From a virus, in the IMG/VR virus record IMGVR_UViG_3300031658_000034, positions 1 through 36,464 of that record: a stretch of 36,464 nucleotides of DNA. One strand, written 5' to 3'. Within the stretch, counting starts at the first letter, position 1; each line of letters begins with the position of its first letter. Shown one piece after another: positions 2,101 to 31,592 of this stretch. The notes beneath the pieces were generated by a model. That model had not been told where the DNA came from. It searched no databases and worked only from the letters and a program-made list of their open reading frames with translations. A program made the translations under genes and the position numbers.

Positions 2101-2367
2101 CGTTGTATTCAATACAGGGCGTTATTCCTGTACCCGGTCTCTTATGACCTGCTATATATTTCTATGTAGACTTGACTATATCTTTACCTTCTAGGAAGGT
2201 ATCCCCCATTTCCACTCACTTGAGTGTACTTCCTTTCGGAATAGTCGATGAACCTTACTTATTACTAAGTCTTGGCTGCTGATTGTCTTCGTCTTTAAAC
2301 GGTCAGAGTTCCCAGCAATTAAAGGGATGCAAATTACACCTCACGATGTAAAGGGGCTATGTTAATA
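2101..2367 (-). ncRNA. Group I intron (no ORF) in the primase/helicase gene
   Basis: These 267 bases separate two halves of one protein and carry group I core sequences on the minus strand. They include TTGCTGGGAACTCTG, then GACAATCAGCAGCCAAG (P-Q region), GGTTCATCGACTATTCCG (R region) and AAAGATATAGTC (S strand of P7), in the correct order. The predicted 5' exon ends in U (CATCTGGT), the intron ends in G (ACAACG), and the exons join as GGT-TAT-GGT-AAG, restoring Walker A. P1 is well formed: GGU|UAU pairs with AUAGCC over six pairs, with the splice-site U in a wobble with G. The intron is compact and has no endonuclease, so it is probably spliced but no longer mobile by itself. Confidence 0.88.
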
Positions 2368-2583
2368 ACCAGATGGGGCAAGATTTAATACGTACATGTT
2401 GACAGGTATCTTGCCACGGTCAGGAGAGTTAATTGTGCATCGCATATGTGATGCGGCTAATGAGAAATAATAGCCTACAAGTAAATGAAAGAATAAAGAG
2501 TCCTCTTGTTGGGTGTGATCTTGTAGAATCTTTACTAATTCCTCACTAGTGGGGTGATACTTCATATCTTCAAATGCTGTCAT
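2368..2583 (-). CDS. Primase/helicase fusion protein, 5' exon
   Basis: The first exon encodes residues 1-72 of the primase/helicase, from MTAFEDMKYHPT to the first half of Walker A (LNLAPSG). Unspliced reading would stop two codons later inside the intron, giving a useless 73-residue peptide. The segment is mostly helical and contains a hydrophobic stretch (FHLLVGYYFSLAASHM) that is probably buried core rather than a membrane span. The start ATG lies 9 bases after the stop of the upstream nuclease gene, whose terminal GGATAG supplies a weak ribosome binding site. The gene therefore depends on intron splicing for any active product. Confidence 0.85.
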
Positions 2584-3708: not shown

Positions 3709-5607
3709 ATGGTTACTTCCTGCGGAACAGGAGTTGGAACAATTGGCCCCCTACCTGGGGATCCAGACAACAATGTTACTTTAAGTGCTTCTCCTGCTTT
3801 TGGTGGTATTGATATTGCCTGGACTTACCCAGTATCTAATCCCCACGCAGTATCGCACACCTTATTATTCAGAAGCAATGCTTCTAATTTTAATTCAGCA
3901 GTTGAGATAGCAGTGGTATCTGGTAGTACTTATTACGATAAATTGCCCACAGGGGTTACTTATTATTACTGGATTCAGCTTGTTTCTATTAACGGCACAG
4001 TAGGAGAACTTATAGGCCCTGCTTCTGCAATGGCACGTGCTCTTGTAGATGACGTAATAGATGCAATTACTGGGGAGATTGGTGACAGCGCATTATCAGA
4101 CATATTAAGAACAAAAATTAACTTAATTCCTACAATTGAGTTTGACCTTATTAAGGAGGTCAATGATCGAATAGCAGAATCTGCTGCCGTTAGTTCATTC
4201 TTTGCACAGTTACAGGCATTCACAGATGATGTGCATGCTTTAATTCTAAGTGAGATCACTACACGTACTACTGCTGATAGTGCTCAAATTAATGTTATCG
4301 ACGCCATAGGGGTTAGTGTAGAAGGAAACAGTTCAGCCTTAGCTATTGAGAAAATTGTAAGAGCCAGTGCAGATGATGCTTCTTCAGTTTTATTCACGGC
4401 ATTGCAGTCCATAGTCACAGATCCTACTACAGGACTAGTTAGTACTCGTGCTACATTAATTAATGAGTATCAAACTAGTACAAGTATTACTGCAGCATTT
4501 GCTAGTTTTAAAACAGCAATCACAACAGAATTTGTTGATGCTACTAGTGCTGCTGTAGGTATTGAGGCAAAAGCCAGGTCTGAGGCAGATAAAGCCTCTG
4601 CAGACTTAATTATAAAACTAGAGAGTACAGTTGATGATCCTACTACAGGGGTAGACGCAACACGTGCAACATTACTTAATAAATACACTACTACAACAGA
4701 TGCAGACACAGCAGCAGCAACACTCAACACACAGTTACGTGCTTATACTAATTTAGGTTCTAGCACCTTCTTACAGGCAACCCCCCCTACTAAAAGAGGG
4801 CAGGATCCTAAGACAGGGGCTAACGTACCCCTACAACAAGATGATGTGTGGTACGACTCTTCAGGTTCTCCCCCTAAGAATACCTTGAATATATGGAATG
4901 GGGGGAGTTGGGTGCCCTCAGTAGATGCTAGTATTGAGGGGGCTGCTGTCGCTGCAGTAAGCACATTAGAATCTACTATGATAGGTTTCTGTACAAAGAA
5001 TGGTGCAGCGACTAGTGCAGAGACGGAATCCACGTGCATCTCTTCTGGAGGAGAATGGCACGGAGGGTTTCCTCTTGCTAAGGCAGTTAAACAGGTAACA
5101 GTTGTTGGCCCTAGTGGTGAGGTTGCTACTGTAGAAACAGCAGCCTCTGCACAGTACACTCTTAATGATGGGTTGAAGAATCAATACACAGTTAAATTAA
5201 CCAATGGGGATCTTATTGGTGGTTTTGGTTTATATGGGGATAGTACAGGGATTGAGGCCGGATTTGATGTAAATAAATTTTGGATAGGATCACCTACAGC
5301 AGGTGGAAATAGGCCCTTCTCACTAGTTAACGGGGTGGTTTCCATAAATAGACTTAGGATAACTGGCTTAGTTCCGCTTAGTGAGACCATTTACTTTCTC
5401 AATGGCGCAGCTTCAGGCTCTTTTGCACACGGGTCAGGGAGGCATGTAATTGTGTATGCTGCATTGGGGACGAAGAGCGGGTACCCTATTGCCGGGATAC
5501 GCGTAACCCTCATGACAACTAACGCGTTAGGGTGGGCTGCACATATGTACACTAATACAGGAATTGGTTTTACTGGTTTAGCAGCAGTTCAATTTGGGTA
5601 TATATAA
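3709..5607 (+). CDS. Tail tip/fibre protein related to lambda gpJ C-terminal region
   Basis: This 632-residue virion protein opens the plus-strand late block. Residues about 20-110 look like a fibronectin type III domain (GGIDIAWTYPVSNP...YYYWIQLVSINGTVG). Residues 120-340 are helical, alanine/threonine-rich and twice carry the motif DPTTGxxxTRATLxNxY. Residues 340-400 contain QDDVWYDSS and NIWNGGSW, typical of tail-fibre linker modules. Residues 470-560 (YTLNDGLKNQYTVKL, GGFGLYG, FWIGSP) match the DUF1983-type segment of lambda gpJ host-specificity proteins. The likely role is a receptor-binding or tail-tip fibre. Start ATG 3709 has AAAGG 8 bases upstream. The stop overlaps the next start as TAATG. 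A gpJ-type module in an N4-like podophage suggests acquisition from a siphophage lineage. Confidence 0.75.
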   Translation: MVTSCGTGVGTIGPLPGDPDNNVTLSASPAFGGIDIAWTYPVSNPHAVSHTLLFRSNASNFNSAVEIAVVSGSTYYDKLPTGVTYYYWIQLVSINGTVGELIGPASAMARALVDDVIDAITGEIGDSALSDILRTKINLIPTIEFDLIKEVNDRIAESAAVSSFFAQLQAFTDDVHALILSEITTRTTADSAQINVIDAIGVSVEGNSSALAIEKIVRASADDASSVLFTALQSIVTDPTTGLVSTRATLINEYQTSTSITAAFASFKTAITTEFVDATSAAVGIEAKARSEADKASADLIIKLESTVDDPTTGVDATRATLLNKYTTTTDADTAAATLNTQLRAYTNLGSSTFLQATPPTKRGQDPKTGANVPLQQDDVWYDSSGSPPKNTLNIWNGGSWVPSVDASIEGAAVAAVSTLESTMIGFCTKNGAATSAETESTCISSGGEWHGGFPLAKAVKQVTVVGPSGEVATVETAASAQYTLNDGLKNQYTVKLTNGDLIGGFGLYGDSTGIEAGFDVNKFWIGSPTAGGNRPFSLVNGVVSINRLRITGLVPLSETIYFLNGAASGSFAHGSGRHVIVYAALGTKSGYPIAGIRVTLMTTNALGWAAHMYTNTGIGFTGLAAVQFGYI

Positions 5608-6020
5608 TGTTACGAAACTACTTTATTTTCTTAGATGTAAATGATTGTGTTTTGTCCTGCAGATCATTCCCTGAAGTATCACATGTAGAGGATGCCCTTG
5701 AGGAATCCTCTAATTACGCCAGTTACCAAGAGATAACAGAAGAGCAATCACAAATTATTTCAGATAATTTTATGCTGAATAATCTCACTGTAGATAGTGA
5801 AGGGAATGTAACCTCTTTTGTTCTACGAGATAGCGGGGAAGTCTCCCCATGGGATGAGGTACGTACTGTACGTGATAGTTTATTACGCGAGACTGATTGG
5901 ACACAGTTACCTGATGTCTCTTTAGCTACGCGGGAGAAGTACACTAGTTACAGACAAGCCTTACGTGATATTACATTACAACTGGATCCCCTTAAAATAG
6001 TATGGCCTAGTCTGGGATAA
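5607..6020 (+). CDS. Tail fibre assembly / tail assembly chaperone-like protein
   Basis: This 137-residue protein begins in the TAATG overlap with the gpJ-like gene, so translation is probably coupled. Its C-terminal third (VRDSLLRETDWTQLPDV, then TREKYTSYRQALRDI, and a proline-containing IVWPS end) is the characteristic ending of phage tail assembly chaperone/fibre-assembly proteins. The N-terminal half (residues 1-80) is acidic and fits a fibre-specific recognition domain. It probably helps folding or trimerisation of the neighbouring tail protein. Position directly after the fibre gene supports this. It is unlikely to be part of the mature virion. Confidence 0.75.
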   Translation: MLRNYFIFLDVNDCVLSCRSFPEVSHVEDALEESSNYASYQEITEEQSQIISDNFMLNNLTVDSEGNVTSFVLRDSGEVSPWDEVRTVRDSLLRETDWTQLPDVSLATREKYTSYRQALRDITLQLDPLKIVWPSLG

Positions 6021-6023
6021 AAG

Positions 6024-7625
6024 ATGAATACTAATCAAATTAATAGTACGGGGTTAAACGCCACTAGTGTTAAAGGGAATAACGCTACACTGACTGGTGG
6101 CATATTATCCGTTGTACTAGTATCTGCACTGCTTATATCTAGTCCTGTATTGTCTGACGGTATAGGGAACACCCCTATTTTAAGTGGCAGAATAAGTAGT
6201 CATTTATCTGGAGGATTCCAATCTCCTGATTTACTGTCCGGTAGTCAATTCATAACTACCCGGCTCCAGGGCAATATTATATCTACTGGCTTAGTAAGTG
6301 CTAATATTGGAATTGCACCAAGCCTACGGGATGGCATCTATTCTGATTCTGTTACTTTAGGTAATTTACAAGCAAGTGCTTACTTACAAATTGCGGATAC
6401 GGTTAGTGCCTCTAGTGTAATAGGGGGGCTACAAGCTCTTAGTATAACTTTGTCTCCTGGTGGTACCTTCTCCAATAGTTACCTTATGGGGAACATTATA
6501 GGTAGTACTGTACTGCTTGGGGACGGGCTACAGTCCACTAGTCTCCTTACAGGTGATCTACTTACAGGTAGGACAATATCTGGTGGTTTTGGTAGTTCAG
6601 GTAGCGTAGGGGGTGAATACTTTATATCTGCCTTCCTACAGAAAGGGGTATTGCTTGTAAACACCCTAGGTGGTGAGATTGATATCGAAGCCATACTAGT
6701 AGGGGGTACCTTACAAGTATCTGCCTTAGATAGCCCTCCTATGGCACTCGGTGCTAATATAAGGAATGGTATAGGTAGCAATGCAGGATTAGGGGCTAAA
6801 TTACTTAGTTCTCCTTTCTTTGCTGGGGGAGTTGTTAGTAACGCGAGCCTATCTGCAGATAACGTAATTGGCGCTTATTTACCTGAGGGTATCTATTCTT
6901 CTAGCATTGTAGACAGCATCAATATTGCGGCCTCTCAGACCCTCACAGGAGGGTTATCTAGTACAGGTGTAGTGACTAGTGGTAGTTTTATAGATGCGTA
7001 CCTCTCACAGGGTATTTCATCAGATAATCAACTCTCATCTGGTTATGTAATCTGGGCTAACCTAGTAAGTGATATTACTAGTGGGGCTACTTTTACCGCT
7101 GATTATAAAATATCCCCTATCCTTTCTGGAGGATTTACTAGTGCAGCTACATTTGACGCTGTATTAAACACCACCACCCTACTTCAATCTGGGATATTTA
7201 GTGATACCTTATTTACTGATAAACAGGTTGTGGATGCTATACTTTACACAGGCATCGATTCAGATACACAGGTTACTAGTGGTTACCGGATATCCTCCCT
7301 ATTACAAGGGAATACCTCTAGTGGCTCTGCTGTAAGTGCTGAGTACTTTATCACTGCCTGGTTACAGGAAGGTGTCTTAAGCCCTGCTGTACTAGCTGGG
7401 GGGCTTACTCTCAGTCCTATGTTACGTGGTGGAACCACGAATATTTCAAGTGTAGGAGGCCCCCTTAAAGCAGACGCAATATTACAAAGTACAATAACAT
7501 CAACTAGTTCATTTAATGGTGATATTCTAGTGGGGTTTGCTGACCCACTAATAAATAATAGGTTTTTGCAAATCGTATCAGCTACAGAAGTACTTTCACT
7601 TGTTACACCAACTAAGGACATATAA
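6024..7625 (+). CDS. Virion-associated repeat protein with about 24 tandem 20-residue repeats
   Basis: Residues 23-506 of this 533-residue protein resolve by eye into about 24 tandem units of 20 residues (a few 18-22). A rough consensus is LxxG[IVG]xSxxx[LV]x[SG]xxxIxAx; examples are LSQGISSDNQLSSGYVIWAN and LYTGIDSDTQVTSGYRISSL. The units are rich in Gly, Ser, Thr and alternating aliphatic residues, have no cysteine and almost no charge, which suggests a beta-solenoid or stacked beta-hairpin rod. A 22-residue polar N-terminus and a 27-residue C-terminal cap flank the repeats. It lies between two tail-protein genes in the late operon, so a virion fibre or spike shaft is the likely role. No known family is recalled. 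The start ATG 6024 is 4 bases after the previous stop, with only a weak ribosome binding site (GGGATAAAAG). Confidence 0.7.
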   Translation: MNTNQINSTGLNATSVKGNNATLTGGILSVVLVSALLISSPVLSDGIGNTPILSGRISSHLSGGFQSPDLLSGSQFITTRLQGNIISTGLVSANIGIAPSLRDGIYSDSVTLGNLQASAYLQIADTVSASSVIGGLQALSITLSPGGTFSNSYLMGNIIGSTVLLGDGLQSTSLLTGDLLTGRTISGGFGSSGSVGGEYFISAFLQKGVLLVNTLGGEIDIEAILVGGTLQVSALDSPPMALGANIRNGIGSNAGLGAKLLSSPFFAGGVVSNASLSADNVIGAYLPEGIYSSSIVDSINIAASQTLTGGLSSTGVVTSGSFIDAYLSQGISSDNQLSSGYVIWANLVSDITSGATFTADYKISPILSGGFTSAATFDAVLNTTTLLQSGIFSDTLFTDKQVVDAILYTGIDSDTQVTSGYRISSLLQGNTSSGSAVSAEYFITAWLQEGVLSPAVLAGGLTLSPMLRGGTTNISSVGGPLKADAILQSTITSTSSFNGDILVGFADPLINNRFLQIVSATEVLSLVTPTKDI

Positions 7626-7627
7626 CC

Positions 7628-8050
7628 ATGGCAAATTTAGTATCCGCCGAATTACGTACCGCACTCTTAGCAGCTTACTTCTCAGCAGGTGCTGCTCCTA
7701 CTAATTTGTACCTTCGTCTATATAAAGATGAAGCCAATATTTTAGAAGCTACCGTGCTAACCGATATTACTGCCAATTTACAAACTGGTGGTGGTTACGG
7801 AACTAAAACTTTAGCCCCTGGCGATTGGACTGTTGAAGCCGGCACAGGAGGTATCCGTGCAAGACTTGTAGATCAGACTTGGACTACCACAGTTGATAAC
7901 TGGGATACCCTTCGCTGGGCTGTCATTTCAACTACTGCAGACGATACTGGGATTATCTTACTAGCCCGCGATTATGGTACTGGTAAGACCGTAACAGGTA
8001 TTGGTGCTAATGTGACAGTTGATGATTTGTTCTATCAAGTTAACGACTAG
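7628..8050 (+). CDS. Putative virion/tail protein, unknown
   Basis: This 140-residue protein follows the repeat protein by 2 bases in the late operon. The N-terminus (ANLVSAELRTALLAAYFSAGAAPTNLYLRLYKD) and the remaining body, rich in Thr, Gly and beta-prone residues, resemble small phage head-tail or fibre-associated beta-sandwich proteins. There is no signal peptide, membrane span or catalytic motif. The neighbouring genes are all tail components, so a structural or fibre-attachment role is inferred only from position and composition. Confidence 0.65.
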   Translation: MANLVSAELRTALLAAYFSAGAAPTNLYLRLYKDEANILEATVLTDITANLQTGGGYGTKTLAPGDWTVEAGTGGIRARLVDQTWTTTVDNWDTLRWAVISTTADDTGIILLARDYGTGKTVTGIGANVTVDDLFYQVND

Positions 8051-8052
8051 AT

Positions 8053-8361
8053 ATGATTACTGAAACTCTCTTCGTAGGGCGAAACAATACCTTCTCGCTG
8101 AAATTAATACGCGGGGAGAGTTTCGTACCACTAATTAGTATCTTAACTTATTCACTTACTCTGACTAGCCCTACAGGTACAGTATTAACATTTACTGATT
8201 TAAGCCTGTTTACTGAGAAGGATGATGGAATTGTTGAGATAAATATTGCCCCTCTATTAACTACTGCTGATATAGGTACACACAAGGCAATATTAATAAC
8301 TTTTGACACTGTTAATACGTTAGGTGTGAGATGGCCTAAATTTAAAATCAAGGTGAAATAA
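8053..8361 (+). CDS. Putative small virion protein, unknown
   Basis: This 102-residue protein is predicted to be mostly beta (NTFSLKLIRGESFVPL, SLTLTSPTGTVLTF, GTHKAILITFD), resembling an immunoglobulin-like fold of small tail or fibre-base proteins. The start ATG is 2 bases after the previous stop, and its stop overlaps the next start (TAATG). The arrangement argues for fixed stoichiometry with the flanking tail proteins. No family is recognised with confidence. Confidence 0.6.
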   Translation: MITETLFVGRNNTFSLKLIRGESFVPLISILTYSLTLTSPTGTVLTFTDLSLFTEKDDGIVEINIAPLLTTADIGTHKAILITFDTVNTLGVRWPKFKIKVK

Positions 8362-8747
8362 TGACACAATTATTTGCTAATAATTTTGCTACTACAGTAG
8401 GCGCTACCTTTGGTATTGCAGATACAACTCTTAATGTAGTTAGCTCCACTGGCTTACCTGCTGTAGGAGGAGGGGATACTTTACGATTAACAGTATTTCG
8501 TATAACTGGAGTAGAAGAGCGTGAACATGAAGTGGTTGAAGTTACCTCTTGGGTAGGTAATGCTCTTACAGTAGTTAGATCCGTAGAGGGTGCTGCAGCT
8601 ACTGAATTTGCTATAGGAGACAGAGTAGAACTACGTGTTACTGCTGCTACCTTAACCGCTAAAGCAGATGGGGCTACTACCTATACGAAAGTTGAGATCG
8701 ATGCGCTACCTAATCCTGTCGCCATATCTATTATCTTTGGGAGTTAA
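8361..8747 (+). CDS. Putative tail/fibre-base protein
   Basis: This 128-residue protein starts in a TAATG overlap. Its body (ATTVGATFGIADTTLNVVSSTGLP...DTLRLTV, then VVEVTSWVGNALTVVRSVEGAAATEFAIGDRVELRVTAATL, abbreviated) resembles the small modules at the N-terminal end of phage tail fibres, where a VVRxxEGTxA-type strand is common. The C-terminal YTKVEIDALP segment is a frequent fibre linker. It probably forms part of the fibre attachment or an accessory fibre segment. It precedes the first large fibre gene by 2 bases. Confidence 0.6.
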   Translation: MTQLFANNFATTVGATFGIADTTLNVVSSTGLPAVGGGDTLRLTVFRITGVEEREHEVVEVTSWVGNALTVVRSVEGAAATEFAIGDRVELRVTAATLTAKADGATTYTKVEIDALPNPVAISIIFGS

Positions 8748-8749
8748 CC

Positions 8750-9889
8750 ATGGCTTTTCTAGAAAAAATTACCGAACTTACTACAACTGATACTGACCTT
8801 TACGAGTGCCCTGCAACGCTAAGTGGAAGTGTGCACGGGTTGGTGTTTACTAATATTACTGCAACAAACCAAGTAATTACTATTAAGCACTTTTCTCAGA
8901 CTACTGGGTTGACTGTAACTATAAGTAGTGCTGCGCAAAATGTACCTTTAAATAGTCAACTAACTTGGCCTAAACCAATAAATATGATCGCAGGGGACAA
9001 GCTTATTGCTTCCTGTACTAATACTGCTTCCGTAGTAGCTGTCATTTCAGTATTTCTAGATTTAGCTGCAACACCTTCTTCTGCTTTTGTTCCTAAGGGT
9101 TCTTGGTCCTCTGTGGCTAATTATGTAGTAAATGATGTTGTAGAATTATCAGGTACTTCTTACATTGCAGTGTCCGATAATTTAAATAGTTCCCCCCCTT
9201 CTGTAAATTGGATGGTATCTGCCTCTATTGGAGCTACAGGAGGAGTTAGTAGCGTTAACTCTGCCACAGGAGCAGTAGTCCTTACAAAAACTGATGTTGG
9301 CTTAGGCAATGTAGACGACACTAGTAACGCCACAGAGCGTGCTGCAGTAGCTACCTTGAGTAATAAGACCCTGACAGCTCCTGTACTAGGCACGCCTACT
9401 TCAGGGACCCTTACTAATACTACTGGTTTACCTCCTACTGGGGTAGTTGGTACAGCGGCTATTCTAGGTGCTAATACATTCACAGCTGCACAAATCCTAT
9501 CAGACCAGGAAGTCTCACGAGCATTGCTTATAGATTTTGGCTTCCCTACAGTTGATAAGGGTAACAGCGGCACAACAACACAGACCTACGACTACACAGC
9601 GGGCTCAGTGCAGACTTCTACAGTTACCGGGGCGCATACTATAGCCATCAGCAATTGGCCTCCTACAGGCAATCTAGGGGAGCTTCTGTTGATACTAACG
9701 AATGCAGGATCAGCAGCGGTGACGTGGCCTACAATTAGTTGGTTATTGCCTGATGGCACAACCTCTACAGCTATTGCTACATATTTAGCCGCTAATGGCA
9801 GTAGAGTAGCATTACAGAGTTCGGGTGTTGATCAAGTGTTGCTGTGGACTAGAGACGCAGGAACGACTATCTACGGTAAGTTGGTGTAG
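8750..9889 (+). CDS. Tail fibre protein with carbohydrate-binding-like module
   Basis: This is a 379-residue fibre protein. Residues 1-105 form a beta-rich attachment module. Residues about 118-160 (GSWSSVANYVVNDVVELSG, YIAVSDNL, NW) look like the short CBM5/12-type sugar-binding fold often found in fibres. Residues 165-215 hold a classic fibre shaft linker (SVNSATGAVVLTKTDVGLGN, then NVDDTSNATERAAVATLSNK). The C-terminal part is a beta-sandwich-like head ending TTIYGKLV. Codon use changes within the gene at about 9560: upstream is dominated by T/A-ending codons, whereas downstream has more GCG, GGC, CGG and CAG. This points to a recombination point between a fixed N-terminal adaptor and an exchanged receptor-binding tip. 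The start ATG is 2 bases after the previous stop. Confidence 0.75.
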   Translation: MAFLEKITELTTTDTDLYECPATLSGSVHGLVFTNITATNQVITIKHFSQTTGLTVTISSAAQNVPLNSQLTWPKPINMIAGDKLIASCTNTASVVAVISVFLDLAATPSSAFVPKGSWSSVANYVVNDVVELSGTSYIAVSDNLNSSPPSVNWMVSASIGATGGVSSVNSATGAVVLTKTDVGLGNVDDTSNATERAAVATLSNKTLTAPVLGTPTSGTLTNTTGLPPTGVVGTAAILGANTFTAAQILSDQEVSRALLIDFGFPTVDKGNSGTTTQTYDYTAGSVQTSTVTGAHTIAISNWPPTGNLGELLLILTNAGSAAVTWPTISWLLPDGTTSTAIATYLAANGSRVALQSSGVDQVLLWTRDAGTTIYGKLV

Positions 9890-9891
9890 CC

Positions 9892-11850
9892 ATGAGCCTA
9901 TTACATAAAAAAGCAGCAGGAGCTACTGTACCTGCGAAGCTTTATGTTGATGATGTTTTCAGCACGTATTTATATACTGGAACTAGTGCTGCTAATACTA
10001 TAACTAATGGAATTGACCTTGCTGGTGAAGGCGGGATGGTTTGGATAAAAGGTCGAGACGTTGCTAGGGATCACTATCTTTTCGATACAGAAAGACCTAT
10101 AGGCGGTGGTGTGGAGGGTTTGCGTCCCAATTCTACTATTGCTGCGTTTGCTGCTATATCCAATCTTTCATCGTTTAATTCTGACGGTTTTAGCTTAGGA
10201 ATTAACAGTCAAACCAATTTCGCGGGTAGCACGTTTGCAAGCTGGACATTCAGAAAAGCACCTAAATTCTTCGACGTTGTTACTTATACCGGGGATGGGC
10301 ACAATGGTAGAACAGTAGCGCATAGCCTTGATGCTGTACCGGGTATGATGATTGTAAAAAGTCTGTTTATGACAGGTTCAGGAGGTCCAGCAAACTGGTC
10401 CGTGTACCATCAAGGCGTTTCGCCTGCAAAATCGCTAAATTTAAACTTAACTAATGCTGCCGCTACTAATAATGGTTTATTCGGAACTCCAACATCCACA
10501 GACTTTGTAGTACACCAACCCGGTGGGGGTGACACGCTTAATGCTCTTGGTGATGAATACGTAGCCTACCTATTCGCCCATGACACTGATGCAGATGGGC
10601 TTATTCAGTGTGGGAGTTATGCGGGCACTAGCTCAGATTTATCTGTTAATCTAGGTTGGGAGCCTCAGTATGTTCTGATAAAATCATCAACTGCCACTGA
10701 AGGTTGGCATGTTATGGATACAATGAGAGGTATAACGTCGGGCGGTAATGATCCTTATTTTCTTGCGAATACATCTAATGCAGAGGTCACATCAATAAAT
10801 CTTCTCAGTGTTACCCCTACCGGGTTTGAATTAAGACCTGTATTTAACCCCGCTGTAAACTCGTCAGGTAACACCTACATATACATGGCAATACGCCGCC
10901 CTAACAAGCCGCCTACTGTGGGGGCTGAGGTTTATAATGCTATTGCAAGGACGGGTACAAATGCTGCTGCTACAATTACTGGTTTAGGGTTTACCCCTGA
11001 CGCATCTATCCATCGCAGTAGAACAGGTGCAGAGGAGACTTACTGGCGAGCTAGAACAACAGGTGCAGGGGAGGCTAATAGATCAAACAGAGCAGTAGCT
11101 GCAACCGTGTCTTCTGTATTTGGGTTCAGGTCGTTTGATATGGATGGGTTTACTGTTGCAGGTGACACTAGCTGGAACGATGCGAACGGAAGCACCCTGC
11201 CTTATATAAATCATTTCTTCAAACGCGCCCCCGGATTCTTTGATGTAGTGGCTTATACTGGTACAGGTGTAGCACATACGGAAGCGCATAGTTTAGGCGT
11301 AGTTCCTGAAATGATGATTTTAAAGAATAGGCTAAGAGTCAGCATTCATTCTTTTTGGCCAACTTATGTTGCAAATGCGGGGACGGGCTATTTAAGGCTT
11401 AATGAGGCAAACGCGTATGATTCTTTCACAGGCTTCTACACTTCCTCCGCTTTTACAGATAGCACAGTAACCATTACTGGTGGTGGCTACGCATCAAATT
11501 TCGCGGGGGACTCGTATATAGCATACCTATTCGCAACCCTAGACGGTATTTCAAAAGTAGGCAGTTACACAGGCAACGGATCATCGCAGACAATTGATTG
11601 TGGTTTTGCTGCGGGTGCGAGATTCGCTCTTATAAAGAGAACTGACTCAACGGGAGATTGGTATATTTGGGACACAACTAGAGGCATAGTAGCAGGCAAT
11701 GACCCCCACCTATCTCTTAACACAACAGCCGCAGAGGTAACAGGGGATGATTCAATTGACCCTGACAATAGCGGCTTCATCGTAAACCAAGTCGCAGCGA
11801 CTAATATCAATGTGACCAGCGCAACATACATCTTTCTTTCAATAGCTTAA
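9892..11850 (+). CDS. Large tail fibre with repeated DUF7483-like domains
   Basis: This 652-residue protein is built from repeated related units. FFDVVTYTGDG...AHSLDAVPGMMIVK near residues 126-156 recurs as FFDVVAYTGTG...AHSLGVVPEMMILK near 447-480. A second type recurs near 240 (GSYAG...MDTMRGI) and near 556 (GSYTG...WDTTRGI). Units of this type (tyrosine-Thr-Gly strand, PxxMIxK strand, DTxRG turn) are typical of DUF7483 domains in phage fibres and probably contact host surface glycans. Codon use is more GC-rich and varied than in genes 3709-9500, suggesting recent transfer together with the end of the preceding gene. The start ATG is 2 bases downstream of the previous stop. An assembly protein gene follows directly. 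Confidence 0.75.
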   Translation: MSLLHKKAAGATVPAKLYVDDVFSTYLYTGTSAANTITNGIDLAGEGGMVWIKGRDVARDHYLFDTERPIGGGVEGLRPNSTIAAFAAISNLSSFNSDGFSLGINSQTNFAGSTFASWTFRKAPKFFDVVTYTGDGHNGRTVAHSLDAVPGMMIVKSLFMTGSGGPANWSVYHQGVSPAKSLNLNLTNAAATNNGLFGTPTSTDFVVHQPGGGDTLNALGDEYVAYLFAHDTDADGLIQCGSYAGTSSDLSVNLGWEPQYVLIKSSTATEGWHVMDTMRGITSGGNDPYFLANTSNAEVTSINLLSVTPTGFELRPVFNPAVNSSGNTYIYMAIRRPNKPPTVGAEVYNAIARTGTNAAATITGLGFTPDASIHRSRTGAEETYWRARTTGAGEANRSNRAVAATVSSVFGFRSFDMDGFTVAGDTSWNDANGSTLPYINHFFKRAPGFFDVVAYTGTGVAHTEAHSLGVVPEMMILKNRLRVSIHSFWPTYVANAGTGYLRLNEANAYDSFTGFYTSSAFTDSTVTITGGGYASNFAGDSYIAYLFATLDGISKVGSYTGNGSSQTIDCGFAAGARFALIKRTDSTGDWYIWDTTRGIVAGNDPHLSLNTTAAEVTGDDSIDPDNSGFIVNQVAATNINVTSATYIFLSIA

Positions 11851-11859
11851 AGGAACAAC

Positions 11860-12315
11860 ATGGCATACCTAAACACAGAAACAAAAGAATATCCTGTAAG
11901 CGAGAAAGAGTTACGCTTACGTTACCCTAATGTAGCATTTCCCAAGGTACTGACAGATGTCCCAGCACCTTGGGTTAATGTATTCCCAACACCGAAGCCA
12001 GTTATTACTAACCTTCAGAAAGCATTACAGATAGGCACGGAGATCGACAAGTTAGGCAATCATGTGCAAGTGTGGGTTACCTCAGATAAGTTCTCAGATA
12101 TCACTGTCGAAGGCGTGACAACTACTAAACTTGAGCAAGAGACAGACTACTTAGCAAATGAACTGGCTAGAAGTAACGAAGTAGCTAACGCTCTAGTGAT
12201 AGCTGAAATGGACGCTGCTGACCTCAAGATCATACGCTCAGTAGTTGAAGGTGATACTAACAGGTTAACTGCACACAAGGCTTCTCAGGCGCTATTACGT
12301 GCTAAGCTGAAATGA
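11860..12315 (+). CDS. Tail fibre assembly-like protein
   Basis: This 151-residue protein begins YLNTETKEYPVSEKELRLRY and contains PWVNVFPTPKP, the usual opening of fibre-assembly/DUF4376-neighbour proteins that sit beside a fibre gene. The C-terminal half is helical and charged (ELARSNEVANALVIAEMDAADLK...), as expected of a chaperone-type coiled coil. A ribosome binding site (AAAGGAACAAC) precedes the ATG. It is the second such protein in the block; each follows a different large tail protein, which suggests dedicated chaperones for each. Confidence 0.7.
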   Translation: MAYLNTETKEYPVSEKELRLRYPNVAFPKVLTDVPAPWVNVFPTPKPVITNLQKALQIGTEIDKLGNHVQVWVTSDKFSDITVEGVTTTKLEQETDYLANELARSNEVANALVIAEMDAADLKIIRSVVEGDTNRLTAHKASQALLRAKLK

Positions 12316-29576: not shown

Positions 29577-30866
29577 CAAATGTTAATACTTAACGTTACT
29601 TAAGCACCTAATAATATTTCACTTTCCAACCTTGCTTATTGAAGCTAGAGTCTTGTTTTCTAGTAATACTTTGTTTTACATGATATCTAAGTGTTGCTTC
29701 ACTAAGTTTTATATGTAAAGCCGCTTTATTAATAGATTCAAATGTTTCTAGTGCCCCTTCTGTATTTTCTAAAGTTATTGTTTGTGACTTATGATTGTTT
29801 TTTCCACAAGCTTTAGGCAATGACCTCATACGTTTAGAACGGGCGGTGATACTTCTTTCAACTGCCCCTATAGGATTGGCCGCATCAATAGAATTGAGGC
29901 ATACCCAACCATTCCTACTAGGATCTGAAGTAACATCTTCTCTTATAACTTTCTGAGCTTGGCTTCTTATGGTGTTATAACTAATATTCAACGCATCTGC
30001 TGCTGTTTTGATGCAATCAAATACATGTATATTGGAAGGGTGGGCTATATTAACTAAAGTAATAGTACAGGCATTAGGGCTGTTGGCTCCTTTATGACGT
30101 TCAGCTATTATTAGTTTATGCGCTTGAGATATAGTCTTCCCTTTATGAAAAGAACCTAAAAATGTTTTCATCTCTTTTGAGTGCCTATTAGTAATTCCCT
30201 TAAATTTACTAATTCTACTAATCCCTTTACCTATATTCCCTTTACTAATTTTACTCTTAGTTTCTTGAGAATGTTTTCTACCCGTACAATCAGGAGCATC
30301 TCCACCACCTTTACAAATATTCCATCCTATATTCTCTACAGGGCGTAAATTTATTTCAAGCTGTAAACACTCTTTTCTTGTCCCTTTAAACAGTATATCT
30401 TTGATTATATTGTTATGTTTAATGAAAGCATTTGCTAAGTGCTGATTAGTTCTACCAGTACTATGGTGCCAATGTCTTTCTTTTAAATTACGTGTTACAC
30501 CAATGTAACCTTCTATACTACTATTTAGGTGTTCGGGTAAATGGTACCAATACACATATGTAGTCATAATTAACCCTATTAGTACATGTTATAGATGGGT
30601 TAATTATACGTGAAATATTACTAGTTCTCCAATTTTCATTGGAGTATCGGACTATATCTTCACCCTTTATAGGGGCAAGGCGCTTCGGCTCTCACTTGAG
30701 TAGCCTATCCACATTATTGACCATATTGCTATGGCTTCTCGTGGTAGTCTCTGCACTTTCCTAATTATTACTAATTAGGCTTAGCTCAGGATTAGCATGT
30801 TAAAGCTTTCCCTGAATTCACCTTGTTCTTAACTCCCTATTACTAGGGGTTCAGCCAATATTACTT
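29577..30866 (-). mobile_element. Group I intron carrying a GIY-YIG endonuclease in RNAP subunit 2
   Basis: This 1290-base intron has textbook core elements in its first 280 bases on the minus strand: TTCAGGGAAAGC, CTAATCCTGAGCTAAGCC (P-Q), AAAGTGCAGAGACTACC (R) and GAAGATATAGTCC (S of P7). P1 is convincing: exon CAGCU pairs with GGCUG in the intron, with the splice-site U opposite G. The intron ends in TTTG, and the exons join as CCA-GCT-AAT-GTA, restoring LPANVVH. The endonuclease gene lies downstream of the core, in the 3' part. Confidence 0.92.
29608..30567 (-). CDS. Intron-encoded GIY-YIG homing endonuclease
   Basis: This 319-residue endonuclease has an N-terminal GIY-YIG nuclease (YVYWYHL, then GYIGVTRNLKERHWHH, catalytic-type Arg, Glu in LEINLRPVENIGWN). 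Two NUMOD3-type zinc/DNA-binding motifs follow (GRKHSQETKSKISKGN; KTISQAHKLIIAERHKG) and two NUMOD1-type helix-turn-helix segments (FDCIKTAADALNISYNTIRS; FESINKAALHIKLSEATLRY). It resembles I-TevI/SegA-type enzymes and makes the RNAP intron mobile. AGGG lies about 8 bases before the ATG. It ends 31 bases before the 3' splice site. Confidence 0.9.
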   Translation of the reverse strand: MTTYVYWYHLPEHLNSSIEGYIGVTRNLKERHWHHSTGRTNQHLANAFIKHNNIIKDILFKGTRKECLQLEINLRPVENIGWNICKGGGDAPDCTGRKHSQETKSKISKGNIGKGISRISKFKGITNRHSKEMKTFLGSFHKGKTISQAHKLIIAERHKGANSPNACTITLVNIAHPSNIHVFDCIKTAADALNISYNTIRSQAQKVIREDVTSDPSRNGWVCLNSIDAANPIGAVERSITARSKRMRSLPKACGKNNHKSQTITLENTEGALETFESINKAALHIKLSEATLRYHVKQSITRKQDSSFNKQGWKVKYY

Positions 30867-31592
30867 AGCTGGTAATGATAAACCAGTTTCAGTACCTTCA
30901 TTTTCATACACCTCATAGGTGAAGGTAGCATGATTTAGTTCATCTACTTCAATACTTAATGGTGGATCTTGTTTAACCATTACTTTTATATGTGCATCAA
31001 ATCCATCAGGTAACTTAAACTCATGGCTTAAGGCGTATGCTTGCCAACTGCTTAATAGGTCTTGTAATACTTCCCAAGCACCAGGAGCTACTGATACGAG
31101 TGCTTTATAGAATGCTGCTAACTCAGGTGTATTCTCACCAAAGAGTTGCTTAGGTACTGCTTTACTTCCATAGAAGCAAGTCATACCAGCACGTTTAGCA
31201 TCCTCATCAGATACGGTCACACCCCCGCCTAAGAGGGTACTCATCTCCTCTGTAACAGTTTTGTATGCATTCGCACGCACATTAGGGTTAATCAATCCTG
31301 AGGCTTCTGCACCCTTCTCACAGCGACTTAATGCAGACATGATCTGTATGCCACTAGCTGATGCGTCCACATGCACCATATGCCCTGTAGCGATACCTGC
31401 TTGTGCCTTACGTATTGCCATTACAGCTTTAATGTACAGAGGGCGTTTCTTATCTACATCAGAAGCGAAATCCTCTAATACATCTAAGTTCTCCTCTGCC
31501 CATTTAATACGCCCCTCAAATGTACGTTTATCAAGCCCGTATTGGTTGCTTACGTCTATTAACAACCACTGCCATCCTGTATAGAATCTCAT
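30867..31592 (-). CDS. N4-type RNA polymerase II subunit 2, 5' exon
   Basis: The first exon (242 codons) of the 414-residue subunit 2. It opens with TGWQWLLIDVSNQYGLDK, which aligns to the T7 RNAP segment GYYWLKIHGANCAGVDK. It contains motif A (HVDASASGIQIMSAL, Asp76) and motif B (KRAGMTCFYGSK, Lys133 and Tyr141, equivalent to T7 Lys631 and Tyr639), and ends LSLPA at the intron. With subunit 1 (33212-34117) it forms a two-chain T7-like polymerase like N4 RNAP II, which transcribes middle genes. Total length of the two chains is about 715 residues against 883 in T7. ATG 31592 has AAGGG about 10 bases upstream. Confidence 0.92.

What the first reader, a model, noticed from the sequence alone, without database searches (positions are those of the whole stretch)
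6090..7541. Virion protein made of about 24 tandem 20-residue repeats
Manual alignment places nearly every 20 residues in register (L-x-x-G-[I/V/G]-x-S ... I-x-A). It has no cysteine, few charges and a short cap, suggesting a long beta-solenoid rod. It sits between a gpJ-like protein/assembly pair and small tail proteins, so it may be a fibre shaft or a novel decoration. I do not recall a repeat family with this consensus.
Basis: seen in the sequence. Interest (0 to 1): 0.75.

Follow-up and report, generated by a model that had tools for sequence, protein, structure and literature searches.

The report
Repeat-built string for phage fibre beads
A phage gene encodes a protein made of about 24 copies of a 20-residue unit; the evidence suggests it is the string that threads copies of the neighbouring small protein into a beaded side fibre, a part that published phage structures have left unidentified.

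Summary
ORF 6024-7625 (+, 533 aa) has 23-24 tandem 20-residue repeats, far beyond chance (lag-20 z about 10; profiles trained on one half find the other). It has no cysteine and few charges. The proposed stand-alone beta-solenoid rod is not supported: AlphaFold2 gives only a poor solenoid (pLDDT 59.5), and no solved structure matches. Fifteen further viral contigs carry a homologue (373-938 aa) directly upstream of the 140-aa gene at 7628-8050 (P140). P140's best fold matches are phage connector and fibre proteins, including GP4 fiber I (8jou_a), the 7-7-1 garland and A511 gp105. In A511 such dimers are strung like beads by an extended chain (PMC10811340). In unrelated phages, genes beside P140-like "bead" genes also encode 20-21-residue repeats (11 of 17 tested, against 6 of 90 other genes), and a test case in phage Slicko01 agreed. 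Best explanation: the repeat protein is the string of a beaded side fibre, roughly one repeat per P140 subunit. Not shown: presence in virions, direct binding, stoichiometry. In one clade lengths step by about 81 residues (four repeats). New variant of a known kind; it offers a candidate for the unidentified "string" in phage garlands.

The parts
6024..7625 (+). 20-residue-repeat protein (533 aa), proposed string ('rope')
   Evidence: 15 further homologous contigs
6078..7529 (+). 23-24 tandem 20-residue repeats (residues 19-502)
6024..6077 (+). conserved N-terminal segment of the repeat protein (MNxxQINGxxLN...)
   Evidence: alignment A1
7530..7622 (+). conserved C-terminal cap (residues 503-533; FxDPxLN...SAT...TPxxDI)
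   Evidence: alignment A1
7628..8050 (+). P140, proposed bead (T4 gp8 / A511 gp105 / garland / GP4 fiber I fold)
8053..8361 (+). P102, conserved in the cassette; proposed fibre-to-tail collar adaptor by position only
   Evidence: homology to 8jou_D-like proteins not shown
8361..8747 (+). tail fibre N-terminal domain-like protein (phrog_8469, 5.6e-16)
8750..9889 (+). tail fibre-related protein (379 aa, partial PHROG matches)
9892..11850 (+). DUF7483 virion/fibre protein (652 aa)
   Evidence: PF24299, 3e-94
3709..5607 (+). tail fibre / gpJ-like protein upstream of the cassette
   Evidence: phrog_496, phrog_31
5607..6020 (+). tail fibre assembly chaperone
   Evidence: (PF16778, 2e-14)

Best explanation
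The 533-aa protein is the string of a beaded, chain-like side fibre. Each 20-residue unit would act as a short extended stretch that docks on one subunit of the neighbouring 140-aa protein P140, whose dimers are the beads, so that the number of repeats sets the number of beads and thereby the fibre length. The conserved N- and C-terminal ends would anchor the chain at its two ends, for example to the tail collar (perhaps through P102) and to a fibre or head site. Shown: the repeats, the pairing with P140 in every relative found, the conserved 20-residue register in strongly diverged sequences, P140's resemblance to known string-binding bead dimers, and the recurrence of repeat genes beside bead genes in unrelated phages. 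Inferred: virion location, physical binding, dimerisation of P140, one repeat per subunit, and what each end holds.
For: (1) Two viral scans, one seeded by the repeat-protein alignment and one by the P140 alignment, returned the same 15 contigs, and the repeat gene ends directly before P140 in each of the 13 loci read. (2) P140 model (pLDDT 71): Foldseek top hit is 8jou_a, GP4 fiber I and fiber-tail adaptor (E = 0.05, prob 0.82). VIA-align's ten best entries are all phage or virus neck, tail or baseplate proteins, including 8jou_a Z 7.4, 7-7-1 tail fibres 9rkv_A Z 7.0 and A511 gp105 6hhk_A Z 5.6. hhalign of P140 against 18 bead proteins gives E = 9e-4, collinear over 106 columns. (3) Literature: Milano garland dimers share the fold of T4 gp8 and A511 gp105; in A511 an extended chain runs across each dimer like beads on a string, and for Milano it is unclear what serves as the string (PMC10811340). 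The 7-7-1 garland protein is homodimeric (PMC12796354). 8JOU_g is described as a dimeric fibril protein linking an adhesin to the collar (PMC13243795). (4) The gene after a phrog_240-type bead gene has 19-22-residue periodicity in 11 of 17 phages against 6 of 90 other genes (Fisher 3e-7). In phage Oline the repeat gene (gp32, z 6.4) lies on the other side. 7-7-1 gp010 and Milano_002 have 21-residue repeats; in 7-7-1 they lie near the garland gene. (5) Prospective test: the Slicko01 protein that is by size the probable relative of LSH1 gp34 (1843 aa) shows 20/40-residue periodicity at about residues 1050-1600 (z about 10). (6) Several other strings have 9-11 repeats, and 8jou contains 10 bead chains. 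(7) The main clade's lengths are 373/374, 452/453, 532/533, 776 and 938, steps of 80.8 residues or four repeats. (8) AlphaFold2 does not find a confident solenoid.
Against: No complex was modelled and no virion data exist for this virus. In Lessievirus JC1, gp53, gp55 and gp56 were found in virions but gp54, the repeat gene in the equivalent slot, was not (PMC9144972). The window's repeats cannot be aligned with the Lessievirus ones (hhalign prob 0.3%), so the wider class rests on architecture and position. All P140 structural matches are moderate (Z below 8, Foldseek E 0.05). Six of 17 next-to-bead genes failed the periodicity cut, and most of the 17 had been looked at before the formal count (Oline's repeat gene was counted as background). 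24 repeats is about twice the number in most other strings. Length steps of four repeats fail in the outgroup clade (550, 627 aa).
Confidence: 0.62

Rival explanations
1. The repeat protein folds by itself (as a monomer or trimer) into a beta-solenoid or quadrilateral beta-helix rod of 20 residues per coil and forms a fibre shaft; P140 is only an adaptor at one end.
For: Hydrophobic period of 5 and glycine period of 10. The AlphaFold2 model has several short strands per 20 residues. The profile's best PDB hits are pentapeptide-repeat (Rfr-type) proteins, E 0.016-0.09. VIA Z 16 to a beta-helical antifreeze repeat 3p4g.
Against: pLDDT 59.5, pTM 0.51; Foldseek E > 1. No Pfam pentapeptide match. 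Poor beta-helix predictions are also reported for the LSH1 gp34-type spacers. It does not explain why differently built 20-residue-repeat proteins recur beside bead genes.
Confidence: 0.2
2. The protein is a string, but not of a side fibre: it ties P140 dimers into a collar, garland or head-surface decoration.
For: P140 also resembles neck/connector chains 9mt4_K and 9c39_K (Z 7.8, 7.7) and the 7-7-1 garland. phrog_240 is labelled 'head and packaging'. In the P22-portal-type relatives the cassette follows the adaptor genes.
Against: The cassette is followed by fibre genes in the window and in most relatives.
Confidence: 0.1
3. It is a non-virion assembly factor or chaperone for P140 or the fibres, degraded or released after assembly.
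For: JC1 gp54 in the equivalent slot was not detected by mass spectrometry. A tail fibre chaperone gene lies directly upstream.
Against: Precise 20-residue register, length variation in whole repeats and a conserved C-terminal cap suit a structural protein better. BcepIL02 gp56 and BcepMigl gp28 are annotated as virion structural proteins, although that label may be automatic.
Confidence: 0.06

Closest known systems
Ralstonia phage GP4 fiber I and fiber-tail adaptor (PDB 8jou; Zheng et al. 2023, paper not held)
   Same: Related Lessieviruses have a cassette of a bead gene (8jou_a relative; 10 chains in 8jou), a repeat gene, a small adaptor (8jou_D relative) and a fibre gene (8jov relative). 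P140's Foldseek top hit is 8jou_a. From memory and not checked here: the GP4 abstract describes five dimers linked by an elongated rope protein.
   Different: The window's repeat protein has no detectable sequence similarity to the Lessievirus repeat proteins, has about 24 rather than about 10-11 repeats, and lies upstream of the bead gene in an N4-like phage.
Agrobacterium phage Milano / 7-7-1 garland
   Same: Dimeric garland-fold beads; string unidentified in Milano; 21-residue-repeat proteins are encoded in the same region in 7-7-1 (gp010, gp009), with Milano_002 the counterpart of gp010.
   Different: Myovirus baseplate setting; different repeat consensus (GDW-YP-Y); in 7-7-1 one to four genes lie between the garland-type genes and the repeat genes.
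Listeria phage A511 gp105 dimers strung by a baseplate wedge protein (BW3TFN)
   Same: The mechanism: an extended chain running across a row of dimers (PMC10811340). A511 gp105 is among P140's structural matches (Z 5.6).
   Different: There the string is the extended part of a baseplate wedge protein, not a separate tandem-repeat protein.
Pentapeptide-repeat (Rfr) proteins
   Same: 20 residues per unit with hydrophobics every 5.
   Different: No Pfam match; PDB profile hits only at E 0.016-0.09; low-confidence fold.

Membership tests
GP4 fiber I type string-and-bead cassette | Adjacent bead protein with the 8jou_a fold | tested here: met
   Foldseek top hit E 0.05 prob 0.82; VIA Z 7.4; hhalign E 9e-4. 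Moderate strength.
GP4 fiber I type string-and-bead cassette | Neighbouring protein of about 20-residue tandem repeats | tested here: met
   other cassettes
GP4 fiber I type string-and-bead cassette | Small collar adaptor homologous to 8jou_D | tested here: inconclusive
   P102 against gp26-like proteins: hhalign E 0.22; position fits
GP4 fiber I type string-and-bead cassette | String physically threads bead dimers in the virion | not testable with these tools
   No complex prediction or virion data available
phrog_19041 (Lessievirus repeat proteins) | Sequence match to the family | tested here: not met
   Not among the PHROG families matched by any of 12 members; hhalign prob 0.3%
Pentapeptide repeat (Pfam) | Match to the Pfam pentapeptide models | tested here: not met
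   weak PDB profile hits only
Beta-solenoid fibre shaft | Confident solenoid fold | tested here: inconclusive
   pLDDT 59.5, pTM 0.51; Foldseek E > 1; VIA aligns it to solenoids

The most novel reading that the evidence does not exclude
20-21-residue-repeat genes are a general, previously unrecognised class of phage string that threads garland/gp8-fold dimers in podo-, sipho- and myoviruses. The repeat count would act as a ruler for bead number, with the 20-residue length fixed by the bead while the sequence is free to drift.
Probability: 0.45. Interest if true: 0.8.

Novelty: new variant of a known kind. Interest (0 to 1): 0.6.

Why it matters
The Milano study states that the string of its garland is unknown, and the LSH1 study could not explain badly predicted regions next to its bead-like protein. 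A repeat gene beside the bead gene gives both questions a concrete, testable candidate. If right, it explains why AlphaFold returns poor beta-helix models for these proteins and offers a simple way for phages to set fibre length by counting repeats.

Tried and rejected
Direct searches with the repeat protein found nothing in phages, viral contigs, bacterial genomes or PDB; relatives came only through P140 and the family alignment. A hand-made consensus of the repeats gave only one hit at E = 3. Pfam and PHROG matches of the family are chance-level, apart from one member matching phrog_36776 (unknown function) at 3e-5, which was not followed up. The window and Lessievirus repeat proteins cannot be aligned, and P102 against the GP4-type adaptor was uninformative. 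The first P140 comparison with only four bead proteins failed; the deeper set gave 9e-4. The GP4 paper is not in the library. In Slicko01's first 50 kb the genes that I picked by size showed no repeat; the repeat-bearing gene is at 103569-109100. The 121-aa gene near it was not tested for the bead fold. VIA-align of the repeat protein's own low-confidence model to solenoids was not taken as evidence of fold, since any repetitive beta model aligns to them.

Full report
OBSERVATION. ORF 6024-7625 (+) encodes 533 residues. Autocorrelation peaks at lag 20 with z = 10.0, with echoes at 10, 40 and 60. An HMM of the unit finds 24 copies, cross-training between halves works, and a de novo finder gives 23 copies, nearly all spaced 20-22. 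No cysteine; about 9% charged residues. No Pfam, PHROG, PDB or phage-record match. Tandem Repeats Finder reports no array in this gene even at its lowest score threshold, so the DNA copies have diverged far.

SETTING. The window is a 36,464-base fragment of an N4-like (Schitoviridae-type) virus: N4-like RNA polymerase, DNA polymerase, primase and exonuclease are present. The gene lies in a + strand cassette: gpJ/fibre-like protein, fibre assembly chaperone, repeat protein, P140, P102, fibre N-terminal domain protein, fibre-related protein, DUF7483 protein.

RELATIVES. P140 led to 13 viral contigs, then 15. A separate scan with the repeat-protein alignment returned exactly the same 15 contigs. 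The repeat gene ends directly before P140 in each of the 13 loci read. The two proteins evolve differently: P140 is 72-89% identical to the window copy, the repeat protein 25-43%, but the 20-residue register stays (lag-20 z 4.6-14). One copy lies in the genome of Giesbergeria anulus, in a provirus-like region. Some relatives have a P22-type portal, Phage_capsid_3 and SU10-type adaptors instead of an N4-like backbone. In a P140 tree the N4-like members do not group together, although most forks are unresolved, so the cassette has probably moved between backbones.

LENGTH STEPS. In the main clade lengths are 373/374, 452/453, 532/533, 776 and 938, i.e. steps of 80.8 residues or four repeats, with a lag-81 super-period in several (L003 z 24, L007 z 9.7). 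An outgroup clade (550, 627) is off this grid. This may reflect selection or merely the unit of duplication.

P140 AS A BEAD. The AlphaFold2 model of P140 has pLDDT 71.1, pTM 0.62. Its top Foldseek match is 8jou_a, 'Fiber I and fiber-tail-adaptor of phage GP4', E 0.05, prob 0.82. VIA-align lists the Bas63 connector 7.8, Sf14 neck 7.7, 8jou_a 7.4, 7-7-1 tail fibres 7.0, phi812 baseplate 6.1 and 5.7, A511 gp105 5.6; the best protein from outside viruses is at 4.4. hhalign of P140 against 18 bead proteins gives E 9e-4 over 106 collinear columns, though with a probability of only 22.6%. I take 9rkv_A to be the garland protein because its length (139) fits the garland gene gp014; this is inference.

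WHY A STRING. The Milano paper says that garland dimers share the fold of T4 gp8 and A511 gp105, that in A511 an extended chain runs across each dimer like beads on a string, and that the string in Milano is unknown (PMC10811340). The LSH1 paper describes 8JOU_g as a dimeric fibril protein joining an adhesin to the tail collar; LSH1's relative of it is encoded next to a protein with a badly predicted beta-helical part (PMC13243795). The DEV paper reports a 15-fold collar like that of GP4 (PMC10925440). From memory only: the GP4 abstract mentions a rope protein linking five dimers.

GENERALITY TEST. In BcepMigl, JC1, BcepIL02 and several environmental phages the gene after the phrog_240 bead gene is a differently built 20-residue-repeat protein. 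Formally, 11 of 17 such genes show 19-22-residue periodicity at p < 0.01 against 6 of 90 other genes (Fisher 3e-7). Caveats: most of the 17 had been viewed beforehand, and some phages are related. Of five phages added later, two are positive in this slot (MEP401, PBC5), Oline has its repeat gene on the other side of the bead gene, and two are negative. In 7-7-1, proteins with 21-residue repeats lie near the garland gene, and Milano_002 has them too. As a prospective check I looked in Slicko01, whose protein the LSH1 authors flagged for poorly predicted spacers: the 1843-aa protein has strong 20/40-residue periodicity around residues 1050-1600. I identified that protein by size and neighbours, not by a sequence search with LSH1 gp34.

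STOICHIOMETRY HINT. Several strings have 9-11 repeats (BcepIL02 11, JC1 10 found plus a gap of one unit, MEP401 10, ct2t2046 10, ctjtQ328 9), and 8jou holds 10 bead chains. This would fit one repeat per subunit, if GP4's own repeat gene is of similar size, which I could not check. In MEP401, Milano_002, Slicko01 and DSL-LC06 similarity at two repeats exceeds that at one, as expected if one dimer covers two repeats; the window does not show this.

AGAINST THE SOLENOID. The model of the repeat protein is weak, Foldseek finds nothing at E < 1.7, and a high VIA Z to solenoids is expected of any repetitive beta model. The alternative is kept at 0.2.

VERDICT. A real, unusual repeat protein, most probably the string of a beaded side fibre. 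The binding, virion location and copy number are not shown.

Noticed in passing
window 2152-2376 (-): Group I intron (RF00028, 84.8 bits) in the DNA primase gene; 79-81% identical to mostly unannotated stretches of many Staphylococcus phages.
   Followed up: partly
window 30627-30876 (-): Second group I intron (95.9 bits) at the end of an N4-like RNA polymerase ORF, next to a homing endonuclease gene at 29608-30567.
   Followed up: no
L003 2279-5095: 938-aa repeat protein with near-identical 81-residue (four-repeat) super-repeats; a near-identical relative in L004 is shorter by 162 residues.
   Followed up: partly
L040: The cassette lies in the genome of Giesbergeria anulus ATCC 35958, beside a connector-type virion protein gene (phrog_437) and an internal virion protein gene.
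   Followed up: partly
L059 12297-14740 (phage 7-7-1 gp010, gp009): 21-residue repeats (GDW-YP-Y and AVAPMADA types) with basic C-terminal tails near the garland gene.
   Followed up: partly
L060 2789-3949 (Mycobacterium phage Oline gp32): A 'minor tail protein' with 20-residue repeats directly upstream of a phrog_240 bead gene.
   Followed up: partly
window 11860-12315 (+): Weak OmpA-like C-terminal match (E 0.006, below cut-off) in a 151-aa ORF after the fibre genes.
   Followed up: no
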